Below are positions 8,801-30,631 of a stretch of DNA of 64,000 nucleotides, in pieces; the first letter of the stretch is position 1; the number at the start of each line of letters is the position of its first letter. The translations under genes were made by a program, and so were the position numbers. Under the pieces are notes generated by a model, which saw only the letters and a list, made by a program, of their open reading frames with translations, made no database searches and was not told the origin of the DNA. Location of the stretch: assembly GCA_947498505.1 (NCBI GenBank), contig CANMKG010000001.1, forward strand, positions 124,001 to 188,000, in the 5' to 3' direction. This stretch comes from an uncultured Maribacter sp. GTDB taxonomy: Bacteria > Bacteroidota > Bacteroidia > Flavobacteriales > Flavobacteriaceae.

Positions 8801-10139
8801 GGTTAGAAATATCTAGCATGTTTAATCCGCTGGCATTTTCACCACCAATTAACAGCATTTTTTTATCGTTAAATGAAATTTCTTCTAGGGCAAAGGACAT
8901 AGGTGTAAAACCGAAAGATTGAAAATTTGAATAACTTCCATCATCATTGTCTTTAGCTAACATATTTAGGCCCCCACCTTCTGTACCAATCCATAAACAA
9001 CCATTGCTATCCTCATAAAACGATCTTATTTTGTCATAACTTAAACTATTTTCTTCGAGAGTTTTTCTTATATGCTTAAATTGTTTTCTGGTAGGATCGT
9101 ATTTATTGAGTCCTCCACCATTGGTTCCAATCCACAATACACCAGTTTTGTCCTTGTACAATGACTTTATTACATCTTTACTAAGGCTGTTGGAGCTTCT
9201 AGGGCTATAATTATATTTCCTTGTTAACTTTGGGAATTCTTGATTTGGAAGGTTTTCAAGAAAGTATAGTCCTGTATTTGTTCCGGCCCAGATGTTGTTA
9301 TTATCATCAATTAAGAGACTGTTCATGTGTCCGTAAGCATTTAAACTGTAAACTTTTTGGTCATTTGGGTTTCTTGACTGACAATATAACTGGATACCAT
9401 TACCTATTAAAAACCGACCCGGGCTTAGTTCTTTAATTGTTCTTACTGCTACATTTTCTAATTCTAAAACATTATTAATGTTCTTAAAATAGTTGTCACC
9501 AGATGCGTTTCTTGATAATTTAAATAGCCCACCACTTGCGCCAACAAGAATTTGCCCTTGGCTGTCTTCATATATTACGGATACGGCATTGCCTATAGTG
9601 TCAAAGTTGAAATTGTCATATTCTGGTACAAAACGCTGAAAATCTTTGTTTTTTAGGCTATTTTGGTTGTTTAAATCTAATAAAGAAATACCATTAAAAG
9701 TTCCAACCCATAACCTGTTTTTACTATCCAAAAGAATTGAGGTTACGTAATCGTCGCTAAGACTTTTAATGTTTTTTTTATCGTGTTTAAAATGTGTGAA
9801 TTTTTCCGTTTTTTTATTAAATAAATTTAATCCTCCACCAGTTGTTCCAATCCAAATATTACCATTTTTATCACCTTCAATACAGTATACAAGGTTGCTG
9901 CTAATACTTTGATTATTAATTTCTGGAGTATATGTGGTAAAAGTATAACCGTCATATTTATTCAGTCCATCGTGGGTAGCAAACCACATAAAACCATCAT
10001 TATCTTGATAAATACCATTGATATCACTTTGAGATAATCCATCCTCAGTAGAAATATGGTCAAAATGAATATTATTTTGCGAAACTAAAAATTGAGTAAA
10101 CCCAAGTAGTATTGGTAAAATGCTTTTTAAATACTTCAT
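5883..10139 (-). CDS. Hybrid two-component system (HTCS) sensor/regulator
   Basis: This single 1418-residue protein combines a glycan sensor and a transcription factor. It has a signal peptide (residues 1-20) and many Reg_prop beta-propeller blades (repeated WIGT, WFAT and LWVGT strands) to about residue 690. A Y_Y_Y domain follows to about 815 and one membrane helix lies at about 822-842. The cytoplasmic part holds a HisKA domain with the phospho-acceptor NISHEFRTP (His878), a HATPase_c domain (NNILSNAFKF, DNGPGI, GVGIGLS) and a receiver with VVDDN (1165-1166) and LSDVIMP (Asp1208). An AraC HTH makes up the last 100 residues. HTCS proteins bind oligosaccharides in the periplasm and switch on glycan-use genes. 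Here the gene is 10 bp upstream of two sulfatases, suggesting a sulfated glycan fragment as the signal. Confidence 0.95.
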   Translation of the reverse strand: MKYLKSILPILLGFTQFLVSQNNIHFDHISTEDGLSQSDINGIYQDNDGFMWFATHDGLNKYDGYTFTTYTPEINNQSISSNLVYCIEGDKNGNIWIGTTGGGLNLFNKKTEKFTHFKHDKKNIKSLSDDYVTSILLDSKNRLWVGTFNGISLLDLNNQNSLKNKDFQRFVPEYDNFNFDTIGNAVSVIYEDSQGQILVGASGGLFKLSRNASGDNYFKNINNVLELENVAVRTIKELSPGRFLIGNGIQLYCQSRNPNDQKVYSLNAYGHMNSLLIDDNNNIWAGTNTGLYFLENLPNQEFPKLTRKYNYSPRSSNSLSKDVIKSLYKDKTGVLWIGTNGGGLNKYDPTRKQFKHIRKTLEENSLSYDKIRSFYEDSNGCLWIGTEGGGLNMLAKDNDDGSYSNFQSFGFTPMSFALEEISFNDKKMLLIGGENASGLNMLDISNPHEINKSKLSPVRSVSRSVFSLLKDSDDNLWIGTYNGGVHRWVKKEGTSEYQKDNIKHNTNNASSISNDIIRDIFEDSYGNIWFATGDGLCKLSTEEKVKKTPRFEIYKNNPNDVNSLSHNYSLAIYQSENGDLWVGTFGGGLNKFVPGKEGSKGNFIRFSEKDGLPNNVIKGILEDDNNNLWLSTNKGLSKFNIEHEKIQNYDTGDGLQSNEFQELACIKRKSGEMLFGGINGFNAFYPKDISENGFRAETVVTNFSIFNKKVEIGKSFKGRVILEKNINKIEEIKLKHNENSFSFEFSSLHFAAPDKNNFAYMLEGFDENWVYTTSDKRFANYTNLEPGDYKLKVKASNNDGLWDESPSEILITVIPPIWKTNFAYFIYLLMAGGILLLFWRYTFIRTTEKHQLELEHLEKEQSEEMQRIKLEFFTNISHEFRTPLTLIKGPLEYLQKKGTQLDQQKVQEQYTLMHKNTNYLMRLVNQLLDFRKINQGKMRLVVRNSNIVEFIKEIAEPFQFLALKKSIDFRITSTNNILMSWFDHDALEKIMNNILSNAFKFTPNDGLISIVVSVNNNLPSPDFLKKTKKHIECIEIQIIDNGPGIKKNKINNIFERFYIEKNESKSNREGVGIGLSFTKNLIELHQGRIEVTSEEGLGTTFNIKLPIDKFIYENIEEISCKEISDNDFLVRSSETESFAIGINDEILDESLSKLRPNLPVLLVVDDNPDIRRYIRQSLDEDYSIYEAENGVKALKIANDVIPNVILSDVIMPEMDGIEFCQKVKSQQGTSHIPVILLTAKSSEKTEMEGLKIGADDYLTKPFNMDLLKIKLSNIISHRDEMRKLFNRKISLQPSEVTVTSMDEKFLNNAIEIAEKHMMNTDFNVEMLVKEMGLSRSNLYLKFKELTGLSSSEFIRNVRLKRAVQLLESSDLSVKEIMYMTGFNTASYFSKCFKKQFGVIPREYVKELKKKKVVNGENL

Positions 10140-16780: not shown

Positions 16781-17542
16781 CTAAATTTTTTGAAATAAAT
16801 TAAAAACAGCCTCTTTACGATTTTTACTAACAGGAATTTTGTGATTTTCAATAAAAAGCAAATTTCCTTCAAATCCGCTTACTAGATTAATATTTACAAC
16901 ATAGCTGCGGTGAATTCTAAGAAAGTACTTAGATTGGAGAAATACTTCTATCTTTTTAAGTACAGTGGCATATACATAACTACCATTTTTTGTGTGAATA
17001 GTTGTATAGTTACTATCTGCTTTTAAGAATAAAATTTCTTTTAGTAGCACACGTTCAAAGTGGTTTTCTTTTTTTAAAAAGAGACTATCATCTATTTTTA
17101 ATACTTGATTTTCAGAAGAAGAAAAACCTTTTGACTGTACAAGAGTTCTTTCAACTGTATTTTTAGAAAAATTCATTAAAGCAAGTTCTATAGCAATATT
17201 TACTTGACGGTCATTAAAAGGTTTTAAAATATAAGCGTAGGGCTTAACATTTTTAGCTCGCTCTACTAAATATTGGTCCGCATGTGACGTGAGGAAAATA
17301 AAAGGTATGTTATATTTTTTATTTATTATGCTTGCTAGTTCTATACCATCTCTTTGTCCTTTTATAACAATATCGAGTATAACTAAATCTATTTTTGGGA
17401 ATGTTTCTATTAATTTTATTGCTTTTTCGGCCGTTGCTGCCACACCTATAACCTCATATTCCATAAGTTTTAATCTATATGCAATATCTTGTGCCAAAAT
17501 AGCCTCATCTTCAACAACTAGAACTTTTACTTTTTTAATCAT
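16781..17542 (-). CDS. LytTR-type response regulator
   Basis: The protein has 253 residues. An N-terminal receiver carries the acidic pair VVEDE (11-13), phospho-acceptor LDIVIKG (Asp57) and a TS..A / KP pattern (FLTSHAD, YILKPF). The C-terminal part is a LytTR DNA-binding domain (residues about 150-250, with FLKADSNYTTIHT and FLRIHRSYVVN). It overlaps the histidine kinase gene by 4 bp (ATGA), so the two proteins form a pair. The likely targets are local, either the unknown gene that starts the operon or the divergent cluster from 20421. Confidence 0.93.
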   Translation of the reverse strand: MIKKVKVLVVEDEAILAQDIAYRLKLMEYEVIGVAATAEKAIKLIETFPKIDLVILDIVIKGQRDGIELASIINKKYNIPFIFLTSHADQYLVERAKNVKPYAYILKPFNDRQVNIAIELALMNFSKNTVERTLVQSKGFSSSENQVLKIDDSLFLKKENHFERVLLKEILFLKADSNYTTIHTKNGSYVYATVLKKIEVFLQSKYFLRIHRSYVVNINLVSGFEGNLLFIENHKIPVSKNRKEAVFNLFQKI

Positions 17543-19440
17543 ATACTCTTCTTTAAAAATTGACCTTTACGAGACCGGTAACGAATTTTTTTTAAAATGT
17601 TCTTCTTGACACTTTCTTTTTTAATGGCAGAGAGTATAGAAGTGTCTCTTTTCAAATCATTTTTTAGTTCTATGACCCAATGAGTACCATTACTAGTGTT
17701 TGCCTTATAAATGTTACCTTCTATTTGATTAACCAGAGAGTAAATTAATTTTAATCCAAAAGAATTTTTCTTTTCTTTTTGTTTAGGGGTAAAGCTTTTA
17801 CCATTATCAATAACCTCAATTTTTAAAGTAGAGTTTAACTCATTTACTTTAATAACTAGTTTATTATTATTTGTGTCTGTATATGCATGTTTAATTGCAT
17901 TTATTACTAATTCATTAATTATAAGAGCTAATGGAATAGCGTTATCAATAGCAACAAAAATATCTGCCATTTTAAATGTGGGACTAAATGTGGCATTGTA
18001 CCCATGTAAAAGACCTAGTACTAATTCTTTAATATATTCTTTTAAATTTATTCTAGTATCCGCACCTTCTTGGTATAGTTTACGGTGCACCAAAGACAAA
18101 GCTTCAACTCTATTTTTACTAGCTAATAAGGCAGTTTGAGCTGGGTAATCAGTAAGCTCATTACTTTGTAAATTGAGTAGACTTGCAATTATTTGTAAAT
18201 TATTTTTCACTCGGTGATTTAATTCTTGAAGAAGTAATGCTTTCTCTTGTTCTCGTTGGCTAATTATTTTTTTTTGCTTGGATAAATGGGTATTAGCGAT
18301 TTGTATTTTTTTATTTCCTTGGTGTAGTAAGTATAAAAATATAAGGACAGTAAGAACGGTGATACTTAAGATTATTACAAGATTTCTTTGGTTACTATTT
18401 GTAGCATTTAAGATGCTAATTTTAGATTCTCTTTTATCAATCTCATAACTAGCTTTTAAACGTTCAATTTGTTGTATATTTTCTTTATTGACTATACTAT
18501 CTTGATAAATTTGAAATTGCTTTTGATAGTATAAGGCTTTGGAGTACTTACCTTGATTTTCATAAAACATTGTAAGTTTTTGGCTAAAATTTCTAATCTG
18601 ATCTTTTAATCCAGCATCTTGAGCTATTTTATAAGCTTTTAAAAATTTTGCTTCTGCAACTTTAGGGTTTCCTTTTTTTTGAATTACATCCCCTAATTCA
18701 GCAATGAATACAGAGCTGGCATATGCATCTTCTAATTTAGTTAAAGTGGTAATCGCATCTTGTAAATAATTTTTAGCTAATGATAAACTATCTTGAGTAT
18801 TATAGACCATACCTAAGTTGCCCTGAGAATAGCTTTTCGCAATTAAATTGTTGTTTTTTTCACTTTTTATAATAACACTTTTAAAGCATACTTTGGCACT
18901 ATCCAAGTGGCCAGCCAATCGATAGGCTTCCCCTAGATTTGAGGTAGTAAATATTATATTTCCTAACCTATCTTTTTTTTTATAAATCTGCATAGCTTTT
19001 TTTAGATAAAAGATAGCTTTTACGTATTCATTATCTGTCATATAATTACTTGCGAGTTGATTATATGATGCAGCACTATATTCGGTCATTTTAAGAGATT
19101 GGTATATTTTTATGGCATCTAGCGCCGCGTTAAACGATAATCCATTATTACCTAAAACACGGTGGATATGACTAATTTCTTCTAAGGCAGCAGCCTCTAG
19201 AGAATCTGACTTAATTTCTTTTGCTATTTTAAGAGACTTTTTAGCAAAGAGTAAAGCAGTATCTGGGTTTGTATGGGAATAGGCAATATTAGCATATAAT
19301 ACGGCTCTTTTTTCTATTGATATTTCGGAAGTTTTTAGTTGGTTTAATAAACTATCCACTTGACAGAAAATCGATGTAGGGTAAAAAACGTATATAATAA
19401 AAAGAGTTTTATATAAATATGAAACTATAAATTTTAGCAC
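17539..19440 (-). CDS. TPR-containing sensor histidine kinase (HisKA_2 type)
   Basis: A 633-residue sensor. It has an N-terminal signal or anchor segment, then about seven TPR-like helical repeats up to residue 330 that form an extracytoplasmic sensor. One membrane helix follows at about 350-372, then a coiled linker, a HisKA_2 dimerisation domain with LNHRVKNNLQ (His409) and a HATPase domain (LALIINELVINAIKHAY, NGKSFTPKQ, FGLKLI). This architecture is common in Bacteroidota, and TPRs may sense peptides or proteins. The gene is coupled to the LytTR regulator by ATGA overlap and follows the upstream small gene by 6 bp, so all three are one operon. Confidence 0.93.
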   Translation of the reverse strand: MLKFIVSYLYKTLFIIYVFYPTSIFCQVDSLLNQLKTSEISIEKRAVLYANIAYSHTNPDTALLFAKKSLKIAKEIKSDSLEAAALEEISHIHRVLGNNGLSFNAALDAIKIYQSLKMTEYSAASYNQLASNYMTDNEYVKAIFYLKKAMQIYKKKDRLGNIIFTTSNLGEAYRLAGHLDSAKVCFKSVIIKSEKNNNLIAKSYSQGNLGMVYNTQDSLSLAKNYLQDAITTLTKLEDAYASSVFIAELGDVIQKKGNPKVAEAKFLKAYKIAQDAGLKDQIRNFSQKLTMFYENQGKYSKALYYQKQFQIYQDSIVNKENIQQIERLKASYEIDKRESKISILNATNSNQRNLVIILSITVLTVLIFLYLLHQGNKKIQIANTHLSKQKKIISQREQEKALLLQELNHRVKNNLQIIASLLNLQSNELTDYPAQTALLASKNRVEALSLVHRKLYQEGADTRINLKEYIKELVLGLLHGYNATFSPTFKMADIFVAIDNAIPLALIINELVINAIKHAYTDTNNNKLVIKVNELNSTLKIEVIDNGKSFTPKQKEKKNSFGLKLIYSLVNQIEGNIYKANTSNGTHWVIELKNDLKRDTSILSAIKKESVKKNILKKIRYRSRKGQFLKKSI

Positions 19441-19446
19441 AAAAAT

Positions 19447-20001
19447 TTATTTTTTGCGCGTGGCGCTAACTTTTATTATTGGATCCAAAATGTAATAATA
19501 GGGGCGCTTTCCATTATCCAAAGCAATGGAGAATATAATACTATACGAAACATAAGAGTCAATTGCATTTTTCTTGGTAGCAATAGTACAAATGCCATTA
19601 TTATCAGGAGATACATATAAAAAATTATCTGGAGTAGCATATATGTGTGCGCTATTTATATTAAAAATTTTACTCCAATATTTCTTTGGCGGGTTAATTA
19701 GGTTATTAAATTCTTTACCTACATTTTTAATTTTAGAACATATCAATTTCCCAATAATAAAATTAAAGCGTTCTTCTATATTTTCGTTTTCTAAGCTAAT
19801 AGATATTTTAGTGTTTTTATCAATACTGGGAAATTCATAATTATCTAGATTAATAAAATTATCTGCTCTAATAGGATCATAGCTTGTTCCTAAATTTAAA
19901 TAACTGGTTTTTATTGCAGTAACCAAACCATTGGTATTAATTGGAAATTTAACGATAAGGGGGTCTTGACTATTTTGTTGTAATACAAATTGAATAAACA
20001 T
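19447..20001 (-). CDS. Unknown protein, first gene of kinase/regulator operon (possible DP-EP or AidA/PixA-like end)
   Basis: A 184-residue protein with no signal peptide and no membrane segment. I do not recognise it firmly. The C-terminus, YSIIFSIALDNGK followed by YYYILDPIIKV, resembles the closing strands of small beta-sandwich families such as DP-EP proteins or AidA/PixA-type inclusion body proteins, which end in a similar aromatic-DP-I-V pattern. The N-terminal part does not show their usual motifs. It stands at the head of the operon with the TPR kinase and LytTR regulator (6-bp gap) and is divergent from the unknown cluster at 20421. It may be a partner or a target of that cluster. 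Confidence 0.5.
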   Translation of the reverse strand: MFIQFVLQQNSQDPLIVKFPINTNGLVTAIKTSYLNLGTSYDPIRADNFINLDNYEFPSIDKNTKISISLENENIEERFNFIIGKLICSKIKNVGKEFNNLINPPKKYWSKIFNINSAHIYATPDNFLYVSPDNNGICTIATKKNAIDSYVSYSIIFSIALDNGKRPYYYILDPIIKVSATRKK

Positions 20002-20420
20002 TTCTGTGGTTTTTAAAATATTTTGGAATATACTTTAAATATATTGAAAGTTTATAAAACATTGTAAATAAGTTTTTTCTTACTAGTGTTTATTTGACAC
20101 CCACTAAATAAACAACCCCGTTCACTCATTTATTTTTTAAAAGTAGTATTTAACTTACATATTAGCGGCAGTCAATTTAAAGAATAGGAGTTCCTAATGA
20201 GTTGATGAACATCTCACCTGGCCAAGAAGAGATAGCATATTATTAAGCAAGTAAAAGGTTTTAATCACTGCTGTATTTAAATACTTAAAAAAAGCAATGG
20301 TATAATAACAGACTAGCTTATTTGTCTTAATAAATTTTAAATGTAAGAGTAAATTAAATATTAATTAGGATGTAAGTAAATGATTGGTTTCATCTTATAT
20401 CATTAAAAAAACAATGAATT
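20002..20420. other. 419-bp divergent intergenic region
   Basis: This region lies between the kinase operon (minus) and the unknown cluster (plus) and should hold both promoters. I found no exact TAnnTTTG box on either strand. The minus strand has TATATTTA, one mismatch from the box, about 45 bp upstream of the ATG at 20001. No ORF of useful size and no strong palindrome are visible. Confidence 0.5.
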
Positions 20421-21818
20421 ATGGCTTTTTCATCAGAACAAGTGTGGGCAAAGTTTTTCGAAGATTTAGTACAAACGGCAGTACCAAATTTTGACAGCGA
20501 CACCCAAGCAGTATCTATTGCAGGAACTACTCTAAGTGCAGACCTGGCAAATGCGGATCCAGAAATTAGCAATGCTAATATTTATAACATTGGTAATTTG
20601 CTACCTGCACAAGGACCAACATATGCACCTGCGGGGGATTTAATTACTTCATATGCTTTATTTCTTCAGAATATAGATTTAGGTGGGGATACAAATCCAG
20701 CATTACAAACAGAAATTAATAGTGCGGCCGCGGAAGTAAGTGCCAACCAAAATAATTTTGATAAAGTTCAGAAAGAAGCCGTAGCGGCTTACACGGATTA
20801 TAAAACTATAAATCCGGATTTTGATCAAGGGTTCTCGGAGTATGCTAATGCAAACTATCCTACTTTTAATGCAGCTAAAAATTCGTTAACAGCTGCCGTA
20901 ACAAGGTATAATGGACTTTTGACGAAGGCTTATGGTCCTGGATATGCAACAATACAAAATGCGGAGTCAGCAGTAAGTTTTATTTCAGGAGCTAGAAGCA
21001 TATCTGGAAAAAATGTGTATAACATGAATGTTAAAGTGGGTACGGTAGCGCCATCTGGAAGTAAACAGGTATTACCCGGACAAGACCCAGCTGCACCACT
21101 TAGTACTTTAACGAAAACATTTAGACCTGCGTTTAGTCTTGGGGGAAATTTGCCAGGTGTGCTTAAATCATGGCAGCAAGCTAGCGTAGAGGAGACTTTC
21201 CCGGTTTCTTTTAGTTTATCTGGGGATTTTTCAAACGGTAACTATAGAGACTTTGGCTGGAGTGAACAGGCAAAGGCATCGTATAGATCATGGTTTTCGG
21301 TTAAAGTGTCTCAAGAAGCTTCATATGAGTCAGTAAAAGTAGATTTAAATGCATCTTCTTTTGATTGTACAATTTCTTTTAACGGATTGCAAACATTTCC
21401 TATTAATGCAGATAGTAATTGGTTTCAGAGCGGAATTATTCAAAATTATAAGGATAAACTTGATAAAAACAGTCCCAAGTTTTTTGGAGACGGGGGGAGT
21501 TTATATGTAGTACCTTCTTCAGTAATTCTTGCGTATGGTTTAAAAATTACTATTAAGGTAGATAATGCAAGTTACAATTCATTAAAAACTGCATTTCAAC
21601 AACATGCTTCAGTTTCTGTTGGGGTTGGCCCTTTCAGTTTTAGCGGCTCAGAATCCTCACATTTAAACACTTCTAGTTTTACATATGATGCGGATTCTAA
21701 CTCTATCAGTATTGAACCAAAAAACACCAATATTCCTTTTCTTTTAGGGGTTATAAACAATAAATATGGTGTTTCAGAAAGTGCTGTGAAGGAAAAAGTA
21801 ATGCAGACTAGTAAATAA
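20421..21818 (+). CDS. Unknown protein, long paralogue of the 20.4-24 kb cluster
   Basis: This 465-residue protein belongs to no family I can name. It has no signal peptide, lipobox or membrane segment. Residues 1-85 include NIYNIGNLLPAQ and GDLITSYALFLQN. Residues about 95-180 are Ala/Asn-rich and helical, probably coiled-coil, and are absent from the paralogue. From 185 come SAVSFISGARS and YNM, then strand-rich segments with WFQSGII, KFFGDGGSLYVVPSSV and GVGPFSFSGSESS. It closes with IPFLLGVINNKYG. The gene 80 bp downstream shares these blocks in the same order. The beta-rich C-terminal half and conserved FFG..GSL motif suggest a structural or binding protein rather than an obvious enzyme. 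Confidence 0.75.
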   Translation: MAFSSEQVWAKFFEDLVQTAVPNFDSDTQAVSIAGTTLSADLANADPEISNANIYNIGNLLPAQGPTYAPAGDLITSYALFLQNIDLGGDTNPALQTEINSAAAEVSANQNNFDKVQKEAVAAYTDYKTINPDFDQGFSEYANANYPTFNAAKNSLTAAVTRYNGLLTKAYGPGYATIQNAESAVSFISGARSISGKNVYNMNVKVGTVAPSGSKQVLPGQDPAAPLSTLTKTFRPAFSLGGNLPGVLKSWQQASVEETFPVSFSLSGDFSNGNYRDFGWSEQAKASYRSWFSVKVSQEASYESVKVDLNASSFDCTISFNGLQTFPINADSNWFQSGIIQNYKDKLDKNSPKFFGDGGSLYVVPSSVILAYGLKITIKVDNASYNSLKTAFQQHASVSVGVGPFSFSGSESSHLNTSSFTYDADSNSISIEPKNTNIPFLLGVINNKYGVSESAVKEKVMQTSK

Positions 21819-21830
21819 TAACTGCTTTTA

Positions 21831-21872
21831 AATAGGCTCTAAGGTATTCATGGAGATTTCCTGGAGCCTATT
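21831..21872 (+). repeat. Intergenic hairpin between the two paralogues
   Basis: AATAGGCTC (21831-21839) pairs with GAGCCTATT (21864-21872) across a 24-nt loop that itself offers AAGG/CCTG pairing. No T-tract follows. It may act as a processing or attenuation site that separates expression of the two genes. Confidence 0.55.
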
Positions 21873-21898
21873 CATCTAAAGTTTAGTTAAAAAACACT

Positions 21899-22999
21899 AT
21901 GAGTTTCGAAAACGTTTCAACTAATTCATATGACATTTTATATCAAAAAATTCTTGAAATGTTGGGGATAGCAAATTTGACACAAGAAGGTTATAATTTA
22001 TCTGAGGTAGGTTTTTTACAATTTTCTGATTTGGCAAATGTAAATGAGGCTGTAAGTAATGAAAACTTATATTACTTATGTAATAATACGCCTTTATTGA
22101 GTTCGTCATACGTACCAAATGGAGACTTAATTACTTCATATGCACTCTTTTTAAACAATTTGTCATCAGCATCAAAGCAATCAAAAACAAATGGAGTTAT
22201 ATCAATTTCAGAAGCTAAGAATGTGGTAAGTTTTTTGACTGGGGCAAGAAATAGAAGTGTTAAAAACAATTATAATATGCCTGTAAATTCTATTCCCATA
22301 TCAGGAAAAGACAGCTATTTACCATATTATAAATTAATGGGTTTGAAAGAAGCTTTACCAATTTGGGAGGAAAATCAAAATCAAAGCAAGTATCCTTACA
22401 ATATAAGTGTACTGGGTGTTTTGGAAAATGGTAATAAAGTAGATGGAGGTATTGAGTTAGCTATTGAAGACTATTCTAAGTTAAAACTATCTAGTCCCGT
22501 TCTTACTAAAAAAACAGAAAATTCCAATGATGAATCTTTAGAATTTTCGGTATATGAAATTCATGCTAAATTTTCAGGGCTTGGAAATTTTAAGGTTGCA
22601 CCTGTAAATTGGTTTTTTCCATCTTTTTTTAAAAATAAAGCATATAGTTTATTACCAAATTCACCAGATTTTTTTGGAATAAATGGGAGTTTATCAGCAG
22701 TAGTAACTTCTCTGCTGTTAGGCTATAATTTGGAAGTAAAAATAATGCTTACAGAAGAAAGCTTTAAAAATTTTTCTGATGTGATTAGTAAAATAAGTAA
22801 ATCAACCAAAGCAAGTATATCTGTTGGAAAACTAAATTTTGATATTTCTGGAGTTGATAAAAATACTAGAATAGAAAAAGTTAAGGAGCAAAATACAATG
22901 TATTTAACACCCATTGATATTCATTTGCCCAATTTACTAGGGGTGATTTCAAAAAGCACACAGGATTATATTCAAGGCAACCAACCCTTTTATAAATAA
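21899..22999 (+). CDS. Unknown protein, short paralogue of the 20.4-24 kb cluster
   Basis: A 366-residue cytoplasmic-looking protein. It shares ordered blocks with the preceding gene: NLYYLCNNTPLL, GDLITSYALFLNN, VVSFLTGARNRS, NWFFPSFF, DFFGINGSLSAVVTSLLLGY, KASISVGKLNFDISG and HLPNLLGVIS. The central helical region of the paralogue is missing, which explains most of the length difference. Identity by eye is modest, so the duplication is old. No catalytic motif, signal peptide or membrane span is visible. Because both copies stay together and in order, they may form a hetero-complex or act as alternative subunits. Function unknown. Confidence 0.72.
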   Translation: MSFENVSTNSYDILYQKILEMLGIANLTQEGYNLSEVGFLQFSDLANVNEAVSNENLYYLCNNTPLLSSSYVPNGDLITSYALFLNNLSSASKQSKTNGVISISEAKNVVSFLTGARNRSVKNNYNMPVNSIPISGKDSYLPYYKLMGLKEALPIWEENQNQSKYPYNISVLGVLENGNKVDGGIELAIEDYSKLKLSSPVLTKKTENSNDESLEFSVYEIHAKFSGLGNFKVAPVNWFFPSFFKNKAYSLLPNSPDFFGINGSLSAVVTSLLLGYNLEVKIMLTEESFKNFSDVISKISKSTKASISVGKLNFDISGVDKNTRIEKVKEQNTMYLTPIDIHLPNLLGVISKSTQDYIQGNQPFYK

Positions 23000-23053
23000 C
23001 CGGCGTAATCTGAAAAGCCAATATAACAGAGTAAGAAAAAACAAAATAATATT

Positions 23054-23440
23054 ATGAAAAGAGCAATTTTAGTTGCCCATGGTCAAGGTGGGCAAGGAAC
23101 ATTTTCTATTCCAAAAACAAAAACAATCACGAGAGCTAATACTCCTTTAACCTTTAAAGCGGCAAGAGAGTATATAGATAGCACAAAAACATACCCAGAA
23201 TATAGTTCTACAAGTTTTGGTGAATTTGGCCCATTAACAGATGAACAATGCAACTATTTGTTTGAAAAAGTGCCAACGGGTACGGGAATAGTATCTACAG
23301 GCATAAGAAGAGGTAAAGATGTTGCTGGACCTTTAGTATATACGCTAAGAGGTGGGGTAAACATAAACAGAGATGATATCTCGGCGTTTATTAAGGCAAA
23401 TGATATTACTTCATTAATTCTACTTGCATGTAGAAGTTAA
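23054..23440 (+). CDS. Small protein with HG...ACRS motifs (possible Stv-like or caspase-fold-like domain)
   Basis: The protein has 128 residues. It opens with a hydrophobic strand ending in a His-Gly pair (LVAHGQGGQG, His9), followed by TFSIPKTKTIT. It ends, at the very C-terminus, with another hydrophobic strand and LILLACRS (Cys126). A strand-HG and strand-ACxS pair recalls clan CD cysteine peptidases, and the HG-x-F-x-IP pattern recalls small 'Stv' domains found at the ends of bacterial toxins and putative adhesins. The spacing between His and Cys is long for a caspase core, so catalytic function is only a guess. It lies 54 bp behind the short paralogue and ahead of a hairpin, so it likely shares their mRNA. 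Confidence 0.6.
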   Translation: MKRAILVAHGQGGQGTFSIPKTKTITRANTPLTFKAAREYIDSTKTYPEYSSTSFGEFGPLTDEQCNYLFEKVPTGTGIVSTGIRRGKDVAGPLVYTLRGGVNINRDDISAFIKANDITSLILLACRS

Positions 23441-23459
23441 TACCTAGTTTATGGAATGT

Positions 23460-23491
23460 TAAGTCTGCGAATAGTAATGTTCGCAGACTTA
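23460..23491 (+). terminator. Hairpin after the HG/ACRS gene (probable terminator)
   Basis: TAAGTCTGCGAA (23460-23471) and TTCGCAGACTTA (23480-23491) make a perfect 12-bp stem with an 8-nt loop. The following sequence is AT-rich but has no true T-run, so termination may be incomplete and the membrane-protein gene downstream may still be read. Confidence 0.6.
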
Positions 23492-23551
23492 TTAAATAAG
23501 TATTAAAGACTAAAATGTAATACCCTTAGTAAGATTTAAAAAACGCGGATA

Positions 23552-24031
23552 ATGACAAATACATCAATAATTATAAAAAGATTATTCTTTACCTGTTTCA
23601 TTGTAATAGCATGGATAATACTATTTTATTTACTCAATTTTTTTTATTCTGAAGTTAATTTTTGGGCAATTATGCTAATCGGAGCATCAATAATTACTTT
23701 TTTTGGATTACTTGGTTTACCTGGTGGAATAACAACTAATGGAACCTTAGAAGAGGCAAAAATACGATTTGCTATTACTGGAAGTCTGGTTATAGTATAT
23801 CTGGTTTATTTTGGTAGTGTTGTATATCTTCATAAGGATGCTCAAAGTGAGGATGATTTAACCATTGGCAGTTTTGCCTCAACCATGATACCAACATTAT
23901 CTAACTTGTTAATGGTTGTTGTATCATTTTATTTTGGTTCTACTGCTGCTATCGAAATAGCAAATACAGTTTCTAAAAATGGAGGTAAAGTGCAAAATGG
24001 AGAAGAAGAGAAGGATGATACATTACAGTAA
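23552..24031 (+). CDS. Small membrane protein of unknown function
   Basis: A 159-residue integral membrane protein with about four hydrophobic helices (roughly residues 9-30, 36-55, 70-90 and 108-130). A hydrophilic loop containing DAQSEDDLTIG precedes the last helix, and the C-terminal tail is acidic, GEEEKDD. The last helix region SFYFGSTAAIEIAN resembles a pattern seen in small membrane proteins of unknown role. It is the last plus-strand gene of the cluster, 111 bp after the preceding stop and behind a hairpin, and it overlaps the convergent epimerase gene by 9 bp. Membership in the cluster is inferred from orientation only. Confidence 0.65.
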   Translation: MTNTSIIIKRLFFTCFIVIAWIILFYLLNFFYSEVNFWAIMLIGASIITFFGLLGLPGGITTNGTLEEAKIRFAITGSLVIVYLVYFGSVVYLHKDAQSEDDLTIGSFASTMIPTLSNLLMVVVSFYFGSTAAIEIANTVSKNGGKVQNGEEEKDDTLQ

Positions 24032-25033
24032 TGTTACACCGGTTCCAGGAGTTTTCGGAAATACTATTTTGCCGTTTTCTTTGACAACAACGCCCTTAGC
24101 AATATCATTTTTGAGTAAAAGAGCGCCATCCATATCAACATAATCTAGTTGCGGTAAAAGTTGTGCGATGGCAGATATACCAACGGTGGATTCTGTCATA
24201 CAACCTGTCATAACTTTGAGTCCAAGTGCTTTTCCTTTTGCTATCATACGAAGGGCAGGTGTTAATCCGCCACATTTGGTAAGTTTTATATTTATTCCAG
24301 AAAAATGTGAAGCACATTTTTCAACATCGGTCTCTATAATACAACTTTCATCAGCTATCGTTGGTAGAGCACTTTTTTGCGCTACTTTTTTCATGCCCTC
24401 CCAATCAGTTGCTTTTAGAGGTTGTTCAATGAATTCTACATCTAGTTCTTTTAACATATCAGCGTTATCAATAGTTTCTTCAGCTGTCCACGCGCAGTTA
24501 GCATCAATTCTAAAAATAGCATTGGTATGTTTTCGTAATTCCTTTACAATGGCAACATCATTTTCGGTGCCCAGTTTTATTTTATATATAGGCCAAGGTT
24601 TTTCTTTAATTTTTTCCATCATTTTTGGAATGGAATCTATTCCGATAGTGTAATTGGTTATGGGGTAGGAGTTAGTTTGGGTATTCCATATTTGATGTAA
24701 AGGTTTGTTCTTTAACTTACCATACATGTCGTGGGCGGCAATATCTAATGCACAAATCGCAAAATTAGAAAGTGCCTTATTAGTTAGAAAGGAATGAAAG
24801 TTTCCCGGCGTTGTAAAATTAAATGTTTCAATATCGTTCTTAATTTTTTCTATCTCTAGAATCATGCTTTCAACAGTAATATTGTAATATTTACTTGCAG
24901 TTGCCTCACCATATCCTGTTTTTCCATTTAAACTTAAACATACAATTAATGTATCTTGTTGATTTCTAGATTCTCTAGAGATGGAAAAGGTATGTTTTAA
25001 TTGTAGTTGGTATTTTTTAAGAAGAATTTGCAT
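24023..25033 (-). CDS. Dipeptide epimerase (L-Ala-D/L-Glu epimerase type, enolase superfamily)
   Basis: A 336-residue muconate-lactonising-type enolase superfamily enzyme. Acid-base lysines lie in YKIKLG and NIKLTKCGG. Metal ligands are in FRIDANCAW (Asp), FIEQP (Glu) and ADES (Asp), with the DMDG strand near the end. The KIKLG, EQP and TGCMTES combination fits L-Ala-D/L-Glu epimerases, which recycle murein peptides by converting L-Ala-D-Glu to L-Ala-L-Glu in the cytoplasm. Other dipeptide specificities occur in this family, so the exact substrate is open. It is convergent with the membrane-protein gene and is not obviously in an operon. Confidence 0.88.
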   Translation of the reverse strand: MQILLKKYQLQLKHTFSISRESRNQQDTLIVCLSLNGKTGYGEATASKYYNITVESMILEIEKIKNDIETFNFTTPGNFHSFLTNKALSNFAICALDIAAHDMYGKLKNKPLHQIWNTQTNSYPITNYTIGIDSIPKMMEKIKEKPWPIYKIKLGTENDVAIVKELRKHTNAIFRIDANCAWTAEETIDNADMLKELDVEFIEQPLKATDWEGMKKVAQKSALPTIADESCIIETDVEKCASHFSGINIKLTKCGGLTPALRMIAKGKALGLKVMTGCMTESTVGISAIAQLLPQLDYVDMDGALLLKNDIAKGVVVKENGKIVFPKTPGTGVTLL

Positions 25034-29833: not shown

Positions 29834-30631
29834 ATGAATGCACACGAAATAGATTACCACATTTATGGAGAAGAAATGCAATATGTAGAAATAGAACTAG
29901 ACCCTCAAGAGGCTGTAGTGGCTGAAGCTGGTAGTTTTATGATGATGGACTCCGAAATTAAAATGGATACCATTTTTGGAGATGGGTCTAACCAAGATAC
30001 TAGTGTTTTGGGTAAAATATTTTCGGCAGGTAAACGCATGCTTACTGGTGAGAGTTTATTTATGACAGCTTTCTTAAATATTGGTCAAGGTAAAAAGAAG
30101 GTGAGTTTTGCCTCACCATATCCTGGTAAAATTGTGGCTATAGATTTGTCAGAAAAGCAAGGTAAATTTATTTGTCAAAAAGATGCTTTTTTATGTGCGG
30201 CTAAAGGAGTTTCCGTAGGTATTGAATTTTCAAAAAAAATAGGCAGAGGTCTTTTTGGTGGAGAAGGTTTTATTATGCAAAAACTGGAAGGCGATGGTAT
30301 GGCATTTGTACATGCTGGGGGTACTTTGGCCAGAAAAGAATTGCAGGCGGGAGAAGTGTTAAAAGTAGATACCGGTTGTATTGTAGGTTTTAGTCAAACC
30401 GTTGATTATGATATAGAATTTGTGGGTGGAATTAAAAATACTGTTTTTGGAGGGGAAGGTTTATTTTTTGCAACTCTAAGAGGTCCTGGAACGGTTTACA
30501 TACAATCGTTACCATTTAGTAGATTAGCCGGCAGAGTTATTGCTGCTTTACCACGAGGAGGTAACAGCAAGGGAGAGGGTAGCATATTAGGAGGTATTGG
30601 AGATTTGTTAGATGGAGATAATAGATTTTAA
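29834..30631 (+). CDS. AIM24 / TIGR00266 family protein
   Basis: A 265-residue beta-rich protein of the AIM24/TIGR00266 family. Its motifs are EAVVAEAGSFMMMDSEIKMDT near residue 30, CQKDAFLCAAKGVSV, GEGFIMQKLEGDGMAFVHAGG and LRGPGTVYIQSLPFSRLAGR at the C-terminus. Mitochondrial AIM24 supports inner-membrane organisation; bacterial members have no established role and are cytoplasmic. The C-terminal tail is glycine-rich. It stands alone and converges on the threonine dehydratase-like gene with an 11-bp gap and only a weak 6-bp stem between them. Confidence 0.9.
   Translation: MNAHEIDYHIYGEEMQYVEIELDPQEAVVAEAGSFMMMDSEIKMDTIFGDGSNQDTSVLGKIFSAGKRMLTGESLFMTAFLNIGQGKKKVSFASPYPGKIVAIDLSEKQGKFICQKDAFLCAAKGVSVGIEFSKKIGRGLFGGEGFIMQKLEGDGMAFVHAGGTLARKELQAGEVLKVDTGCIVGFSQTVDYDIEFVGGIKNTVFGGEGLFFATLRGPGTVYIQSLPFSRLAGRVIAALPRGGNSKGEGSILGGIGDLLDGDNRF

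What the first reader, a model, noticed from the sequence alone, without database searches (positions are those of the whole stretch)
19447..24031. Unknown gene cluster divergent to its own two-component system
Seen: four plus-strand genes (two paralogues of no known family, a small HG/ACRS protein, a small membrane protein) face a minus-strand operon of unknown protein, TPR kinase and LytTR regulator, across 419 bp. None of the four products matches a family I can name firmly, and the kinase pair is the only recognisable element. Inference: the kinase may control the cluster, and the set may be a surface, antagonism or defence system. No transposase or phage gene is near.
Basis: partly seen in the sequence, partly recalled or inferred. 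Interest (0 to 1): 0.78.

Follow-up and report, generated by a model that had tools for sequence, protein, structure and literature searches.

The report
Portable switch driving swappable unknown genes
A bacterium carries a self-contained three-gene sensor switch, with what looks like its own DNA docking site, facing four proteins of unknown families; the same switch and docking site recur in related bacteria next to different genes, so it looks like a reusable controller for proteins that may attack membranes or cell walls.

Summary
The genes are real and at the stated places. The minus-strand "unknown protein" (P5), TPR histidine kinase and LytTR regulator form a conserved cassette: in 5 of 5 other genomes with a close kinase, P5, kinase and regulator stand together in the same order. 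Two 9-bp direct repeats 12 bp apart (LytTR geometry) lie in the 419-bp gap; the same motif is the best site in all six cassette loci, two of them out of sample. Genes next to the cassette differ between loci; two of six loci show no clear cargo. The block is absent from 7 congeners; the nearest keeps only its two ends, so regulator and cargo belong to one unit. P1/P2 relatives occur in Bacteroidota and Cupriavidus megaplasmids, P3 in Vibrio plasmids beside a weak MACPF match. P1-P5 reach no cut-off in Pfam or NCBIfam and have no PADLOC hit. Best reading: a dedicated two-component switch for exchangeable, probably envelope-attacking effectors. Regulation is supported in silico only; effector function is inference; structure predictions failed (pLDDT 37 and 44).

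The parts
16781..17542 (-). LytTR response regulator, 253 aa; its last 24 codons survive as a remnant in sister genome G002
   Evidence: Response_reg 8.5e-18, LytTR 3.2e-18; 58-63% identical regulators in 5 other cassette loci; remnant L048 9751-9826
17539..19440 (-). TPR-HisKA_2 sensor histidine kinase, 633 aa (signal peptide and one membrane span by eye)
   Evidence: HisKA_2 7.5e-24, TPR_12, HATPase; 50-53% identical kinases in 5 other loci
19447..20001 (-). P5, 184 aa, member of a family seen here only beside this kinase
   Evidence: 30-43% identical homologue directly before the kinase in 5 of 5 other loci (alignment A8); no Pfam family over cut-off for any of 6 members
20098..20127 (-). 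Predicted LytTR operator GAGTGAACG-N12-TAGTGGGTG
   Evidence: Best site of all 6 cassette loci; motif search above 40 of 40 shuffles; geometry as described for LytTR sites (passage in PMC4847170)
20421..21818 (+). P1, 465 aa, cargo
   Evidence: 35-36% identical relatives over 95% in 3 Cupriavidus plasmid records; profile hits in Bacteroidota; no Pfam/NCBIfam family
21831..21872 (+). RNA hairpin between P1 and P2
   Evidence: fold of 21819-21898: -22.7 kcal/mol, z -3.87
21899..22999 (+). P2, 366 aa, paralogue of P1 that lacks about P1 residues 87-150
   Evidence: alignment A7
23054..23440 (+). P3, 128 aa, conserved H9 (AHG) and C126 (LLACRS)
   Evidence: 55.5% identical full-length relative in 3 Vibrio plasmid records (alignment A2)
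23460..23491 (+). RNA hairpin between P3 and P4 (attenuator or terminator candidate)
   Evidence: fold of 23441-23551: -24.6 kcal/mol, z -3.12
23552..24031 (+). P4, 159 aa multi-spanning membrane protein (by eye); its 3' part survives in frame as a remnant in G002
   Evidence: 57.5% identical homologue in cassette locus L079; no match in plasmids; remnant in L048

Best explanation
The locus is an acquired unit made of (i) a constant regulatory cassette, P5 + TPR-HisKA_2 kinase + LytTR regulator, and (ii) an exchangeable cargo, here P1-P2-P3-P4. Proposed working: an envelope or extracellular signal is read by the kinase, with P5 assisting or gating it (inferred); the phosphorylated LytTR regulator binds GAGTGAACG-N12-TAGTGGGTG in the divergent gap (predicted) and switches the cargo operon and its own operon (inferred). 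The cargo is probably an effector set that acts on membranes or cell walls: P1 and P2 as an unequal partner pair of a new, possibly pore-forming family, P3 as a small Cys/His enzyme, P4 as a membrane partner or immunity protein (all inferred). Shown: gene content, cassette conservation, shared motif, joint gain and loss of the block. Not shown: any expression change, any toxicity, any target.
For: Cassette: 5 of 178 other sampled family genomes have the kinase at E<=1e-60; in 5 of 5 the P5 homologue, kinase and regulator are adjacent in the same order. Operator: ungapped motif search with four regions 139.0 bits against 119.6+-3.0, with six regions 163.6 against 153.1+-3.1, 0 of 40 shuffles as good in either case (the four were picked after seeing the motif). 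A weight matrix from the four hits L078 (26.6 bits) and L081 (22.2), above the best of 200 shuffles of each (19.2, 20.7) and of 21 control loci (17.8); leave-one-out recovers all four. LytTR sites are two 9-11-nt repeats with 11-13-nt spacers (passage in PMC4847170). In L080 and L081 the site lies 65 and 78 bp before the first cargo gene. Unit: block absent from 7 of 7 congeners, the sister G002 keeping only both ends. Effector theme: P1 relatives lie in a row with caspase C14 (4.1e-31), a sub-threshold trypsin match and N-acetylmuramidase (3e-64) in L024, and with YkuD-hemopexin and CHAP/PG-binding genes in L027; P3's relative follows PI-PLC and a sub-threshold MACPF match; the L081 cargo is homologous (1.6e-12) to a protein 4.5 kb from a P1-like pair in L022; a second strong site in G159 precedes an orphan operon followed by a GH25 lysozyme gene.
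Against: Two of six cassette loci (L078, L082) show no obvious cargo next to the cassette. Here the site is 95 bp from P5 but 291 bp from P1, so autoregulation alone is as easy to read from it. Site counts with <=2 mismatches do not separate cassette genomes from others or from the reversed control pattern; one exact match lies in G008, which has no kinase at E<=1e-60; with that looser pattern the own genome has a second 1-mismatch match, inside a 380-aa ORF, at 16.9 bits against 32.6. No -7-type promoter element was seen on the P1 strand of the gap. No cargo protein has a proven toxin fold; the models of P1 and P3 are unusable. P1-P3 have no signal peptide by eye and no secretion genes were identified. 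Most P1 relatives live without this cassette.
Confidence: 0.5

Rival explanations
1. The cassette regulates only itself or distant genes; P1-P4 merely share the island with it.
For: The site is nearer P5 than P1; L078 and L082 lack adjacent cargo; relatives of P1/P2 and P3 occur without this kinase.
Against: P4 recurs divergent to the cassette in L079; the site lies right before cargo in L080 and L081; the best site of the own genome is this one; regulator and cargo ends are gained and lost together.
Confidence: 0.2
2. Self-directed programme: the switch triggers lysis or death of the own cell (gasdermin-like logic, P1/P2 effector with P3 as protease), for example against phage.
For: A P1-like pair lies with a caspase C14 gene in L024; P1-P3 have no signal peptide by eye; P3 has conserved His and Cys.
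Against: No PADLOC hit, no gasdermin or caspase family in the window proteins, control by a membrane sensor kinase rather than an internal phage sensor; no phage relative of P3.
Confidence: 0.2
3. The cargo is metabolic, structural or surface material, not an effector.
For: No fold or activity is known; sequence hints of pore formation are weak.
Against: Recurring association of relatives with peptidoglycan hydrolases, proteases, phospholipase and a weak MACPF match; patchy distribution and replacement between sister genomes.
Confidence: 0.25

Closest known systems
LytTR two-component systems that control toxin or bacteriocin genes (AgrA, VirR type)
   Same: Kinase plus LytTR regulator, direct-repeat operator of the described geometry, effector-like targets nearby (passages seen in PMC4847170 and PMC4227749; VirR-pfoA and a Lactobacillus bacteriocin paper seen only as entries of a reference list).
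   Different: Kinase is TPR-HisKA_2; adds P5; own repeat sequence; cargo families are new and change from locus to locus.
MACPF antimicrobial proteins of Bacteroidales (BSAPs)
   Same: Proposed role only: membrane-attacking proteins of Bacteroidota used against competitors (abstract starts seen in the listing).
   Different: P1/P2 have no MACPF match; BSAPs are single secreted proteins (recalled), P1/P2 a tandem pair without a visible signal peptide.
Bacterial gasdermin with caspase-like protease
   Same: Possible logic of pore former plus protease; one P1-like pair lies beside a caspase C14 gene.
   Different: No gasdermin match; P3 matches no peptidase family; a transcriptional switch stands in front.
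Vibrio plasmid operon PI-PLC / MACPF-like / orphan / P3 relative (L010)
   Same: Contains a 55.5% identical P3.
   Different: Other partners, AraC gene instead of a two-component system.

Membership tests
LytTR two-component system | His kinase and response regulator with LytTR domain in one operon | tested here: met
   HisKA_2 7.5e-24, Response_reg 8.5e-18, LytTR 3.2e-18, all over cut-off; genes overlap by 4 bp
LytTR two-component system | target site of two 9-11-nt repeats with 11-13-nt spacer | tested here: met
   9-12-9 direct repeat conserved in 6 of 6 cassette loci; binding itself not tested
LytTR two-component system | regulator binds the site and changes transcription of the cargo | not testable with these tools
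   needs bench work
MACPF pore-forming proteins (P1, P2) | match to the MACPF model | tested here: not met
   no MACPF match at E<=10 for P1, P2 or at E<=5 for 4 relatives
Bacterial gasdermin system | gasdermin homologue with caspase-like protease | tested here: not met
   no gasdermin or peptidase match in P1-P5; a caspase only beside the distant relative L024
Stv putative adhesin (P3) | match to PF21527 | tested here: inconclusive
   P3 has no Stv match in hmmscan, own genome 0 matches; the phylum search had no positive control
Clan CD cysteine peptidases (P3) | His and Cys on neighbouring strands of a caspase-like fold | tested here: inconclusive
   H9 and C126 conserved in the 2 sequences known; model pLDDT 43.6, Foldseek best E 1.3
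Known anti-phage defence systems | match to a PADLOC model | tested here: not met
   0 hits for P1-P5

The most novel reading that the evidence does not exclude
P5-kinase-LytTR is a mobile regulatory cassette with its own operator that is plugged onto interchangeable envelope-attacking cargo; P1/P2 are the first seen members of a family of unequal tandem pore-forming partners, spread from Bacteroidota to Cupriavidus megaplasmids, that work with small Cys/His enzymes such as P3 and with P4 as membrane partner or immunity protein.
Probability: 0.3. Interest if true: 0.8.

Novelty: new variant of a known kind. Interest (0 to 1): 0.6.

Why it matters
If right, the repeat and the P5-kinase-regulator cassette are a genome-mining handle: they mark unannotated effector operons (one remote candidate already, G159 contig 27) in bacteria whose lytic or antagonistic proteins are poorly known. 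It also defines P5, a family seen here only next to this kinase, and a switch with one clear site in its genome, which makes the function of P1-P4 directly testable.

Tried and rejected
Scans for relatives of P1 and P3 in genome contigs and viral contigs confirmed none, and a DNA pattern for the GIGPF motif found none in viral contigs. P3 had no phage relative, P4 no plasmid relative; P4 and P5 were not searched on their own in genomes. P3 was absent from the other 59 of 60 relatives and the other 394 of 395 phylum genomes. PDB profile searches gave nothing usable for P1, P3, P5. Folds of P1 (two-row window alignment) and P3 (single sequence) were too poor to use; Foldseek with the P3 model gave nothing below E 1.3; no search was made with the P1 model. 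An AgrA-type LytTR consensus did not stand out in the gaps. Homology of the 149-aa lipoprotein of G002 to P5 reaches only E=0.2 and is not claimed. Two-component genes beside P1 relatives in Cupriavidus and L023 were considered as independent support; about 3 of 11 lineages by my count is weak, so it is not used as proof.

Mended after checking: the first motif control gave the real data 150 restarts and the shuffles 40; one search repeats it with 100 each. The trypsin match in L024 is below cut-off, and the L022 neighbours are 4.5 kb or more away.

Rows dropped: G053, G754, G785, G788, G843 (E 6e-4 to 1e-3, frames 205-226 aa) and G422 (1.3e-4) were not treated as P1 relatives; G896 (2.5e-4) and G407 (1e-11) were looked at but not used. 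In one search the loci chosen by the motif (L121-L126), the plasmid loci L007-L010 and loci under 8 kb were left out of the controls.
Full report
Observation. The kinase has TPR, HisKA_2 and HATPase domains, the regulator Response_reg and LytTR. P1-P5 reach no curated cut-off in Pfam or NCBIfam, have no PADLOC hit and only weak PHROGs hits (E>=0.029). P1 and P2 are paralogues; P2 lacks about P1 residues 87-150.

The block is an island. In 7 of 7 congeners the best match to the kinase is at most 38% identical and covers the C-terminal kinase half, while the epimerase-like gene at 24023-25033 is present in all 7. Blastn of window 10-32 kb against the 7 loci shows conserved flanks on both sides and nothing from about 16.8 to 24.0 kb, except at the edges in G002. 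Between the flanks lie 97-99 bp (L051, L053), one gene of 349-351 aa (L049, L050, L054; L049's has no Pfam hit), or a similar gene plus SusC/SusD-like genes by eye (L052). The nearest sister, G002 (L048; 98.0% DNA identity right, 93.8% left), keeps only the ends: the last 24 codons of the regulator, and the 3' part of P4, still in frame, with about 1.1 kb between them that holds a 149-aa lipoprotein-like ORF. So a block reaching from the regulator to P4 was once there too: two-component genes and cargo belong to one unit. The ORF's C-terminus looks like that of P5 by eye, but the profile match is only E=0.2.

The regulator is a cassette. Of 179 sampled genomes of the family, 6 including the own one hold the kinase at E<=1e-60; the other five are 50-53% identical. 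In 5 of 5 a P5 homologue (30-43%), the kinase and a 58-63% identical regulator stand in the same order, so P5 belongs to the switch. What lies next to the cassette differs. L079: divergent 260-aa and 114-aa orphans and a P4 homologue (57.5%). L080: divergent 282-aa, 161-aa (IAHGNG...STC by eye), 359-aa (GAHSRGA by eye, no Pfam hit) and 888-aa protein with an AIM24 domain. L081: 233-aa and 256-aa orphans after the regulator. L078 and L082: no clear cargo. The 233-aa protein of L081 is homologous (E=1.6e-12) to a protein 4.5 kb from a P1-like pair in L022.

The operator. An ungapped 30-bp motif search in the P5-upstream regions converged on ATGAGTGAACG-N12-TAGTGRR. With equal restarts (one search had favoured the real data) it scores 139.0 bits against 119.6 +- 3.0 (largest of 40 shuffles 126.0) for four regions (window, L079, L080, L082; picked after seeing the motif), and 163.6 against 153.1 +- 3.1 (largest 158.3) for all six; in L078 and L081 the site is not upstream of P5. 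A weight matrix from the four sites then finds L078 8218-8250 (26.6 bits, after the regulator gene) and L081 10574-10606 (22.2 bits, between regulator and cargo) as the best sites of these 19-kb loci. 200 shuffles of each reach at most 19.2 and 20.7, 21 control loci at most 17.8, and leaving out each of the four in turn still finds it first. In the window no other site has <=3 mismatches. In the whole genome the strict pattern finds one other match, with 3 mismatches, against 5 for the reversed control; the looser pattern gives three matches, one of them, at contig 8 inside a 380-aa ORF, with 1 mismatch as here (16.9 against 32.6 bits). In 32 genomes <=2-mismatch counts do not differ from the control pattern; exact matches lie at the cassettes of G033, G009 and G159, and once in G008, one of 26 genomes without a known cassette. 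In G159 a second strong site (26.3 bits) on contig 27 precedes a minus-strand operon of orphan proteins (281, 491, 84, 89 aa), further down a GH25 lysozyme gene (6.8e-26). LytTR sites are described as two direct or inverse repeats of 9-11 nt separated by 11-13 nt without a common consensus (passage in PMC4847170); the site fits. Distances: 95 bp from P5 and 291 bp from P1 here; 65 bp from cargo in L080, 78 bp in L081, 177 bp in L079.

The cargo. P1 has relatives at 35-36% identity over 95% in 3 Cupriavidus plasmid records, each followed by a P2-like gene and preceded by a kinase-regulator pair, which in L009 is HisKA_3 and Response_reg-GerE. By search with P1 alone 3 of 299 family genomes match, by profile 7 of 395 phylum and 16 of 376 order genomes, own genome included each time; the weakest are doubtful. 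A P1-like gene in tandem with a diverged partner recurs in L021, L022, L024, L027 and L083. In L024 caspase C14, a sub-threshold trypsin match, a small ORF, the pair, a 231-aa ORF and N-acetylmuramidase form one row; in L027 YkuD-hemopexin and CHAP/PG-binding genes flank the pair's operon; in L022 a trypsin-like gene lies about 7 kb away; in L023 a HisKA_3 kinase and a GerE regulator gene flank P1's relative. Nine of the ten long members looked at keep a recognisable uncharged Gly/Ser-rich stretch of the GIGPF type, which is degraded in the partners (judged by eye); this is the only sequence hint of membrane hairpins. P3 has a 55.5% identical full-length relative in 3 Vibrio plasmid records, in L010 after a PI-PLC gene (6.1e-22), an 881-aa protein with a sub-threshold MACPF match (E=6.6e-4, 20.3 bits, cut-off 21.5) and a 261-aa orphan, with an AraC gene upstream. 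RNA hairpins lie between P1 and P2 and between P3 and P4 (z -3.9 and -3.1), which would suit unequal expression.

Mechanism. Shown: gene content, conservation of the cassette, the shared motif, joint gain and loss. Inferred: the regulator binds the motif; it controls the cargo; P5 takes part in sensing or gating; the cargo attacks membranes or walls of competitors or of the own cell; P4 is a membrane partner or immunity protein. I put control of the cargo at about 0.8 and an envelope-attacking role at about 0.5. Antagonism and self-directed killing cannot be told apart from these data.

Novelty. A LytTR system next to its effector genes is a known kind. New here are the cassette with P5, its operator, its pairing with changing cargo, and the P1/P2 and P3 families. 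Seven literature searches on Stv, the kinase/LytTR combination, bacterial gasdermin, aegerolysin-MACPF in Vibrio, LytTR with toxins, BSAP and LytTR with bacteriocins showed, in their listings and abstract starts, nothing that describes this locus; only passages of PMC4227749 and PMC4847170 were read. The held library lacks most subscription journals, so this is not proof of absence.

Noticed in passing
L048 (G002) 8951-9400: 149-aa lipoprotein-like ORF sits where the block was; its C-terminus resembles that of P5 (profile E=0.2 only).
   Followed up: partly
L123 8217-8249 and 2903-8014 (G159 contig 27): Remote copy of the operator (26.3 bits) before an operon of orphan proteins, several short frames and a GH25 lysozyme gene.
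   Followed up: partly
L121 8626-8679 (G009 contig 76): Three half-sites in tandem (TAGTGAATG every 21 bp), a possible second target of the regulator in G009.
   Followed up: partly
L122 8608-8640 (G008): Exact match to the operator pattern upstream of a 2014-aa gene in a genome without a close kinase.
   Followed up: partly
L024 4978-12169: Caspase C14, weak trypsin match, tandem P1-like pair and N-acetylmuramidase in a row: looks like a lysis or cell-death locus of its own.
   Followed up: partly
L010 3633-8381: Vibrio plasmid operon: PI-PLC, weak MACPF match, 261-aa orphan and P3 relative.
   Followed up: partly
L081 11597-12367: 256-aa cargo ORF with NGCSM and HDHDH motifs, by eye a candidate Cys/His enzyme; no Pfam hit.
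   Followed up: no
window 29834-30631; L080 14895-17561: An AIM24-like gene (by eye) lies 6 kb from the cluster, and an AIM24 domain is in the last cargo protein of L080.
   Followed up: no
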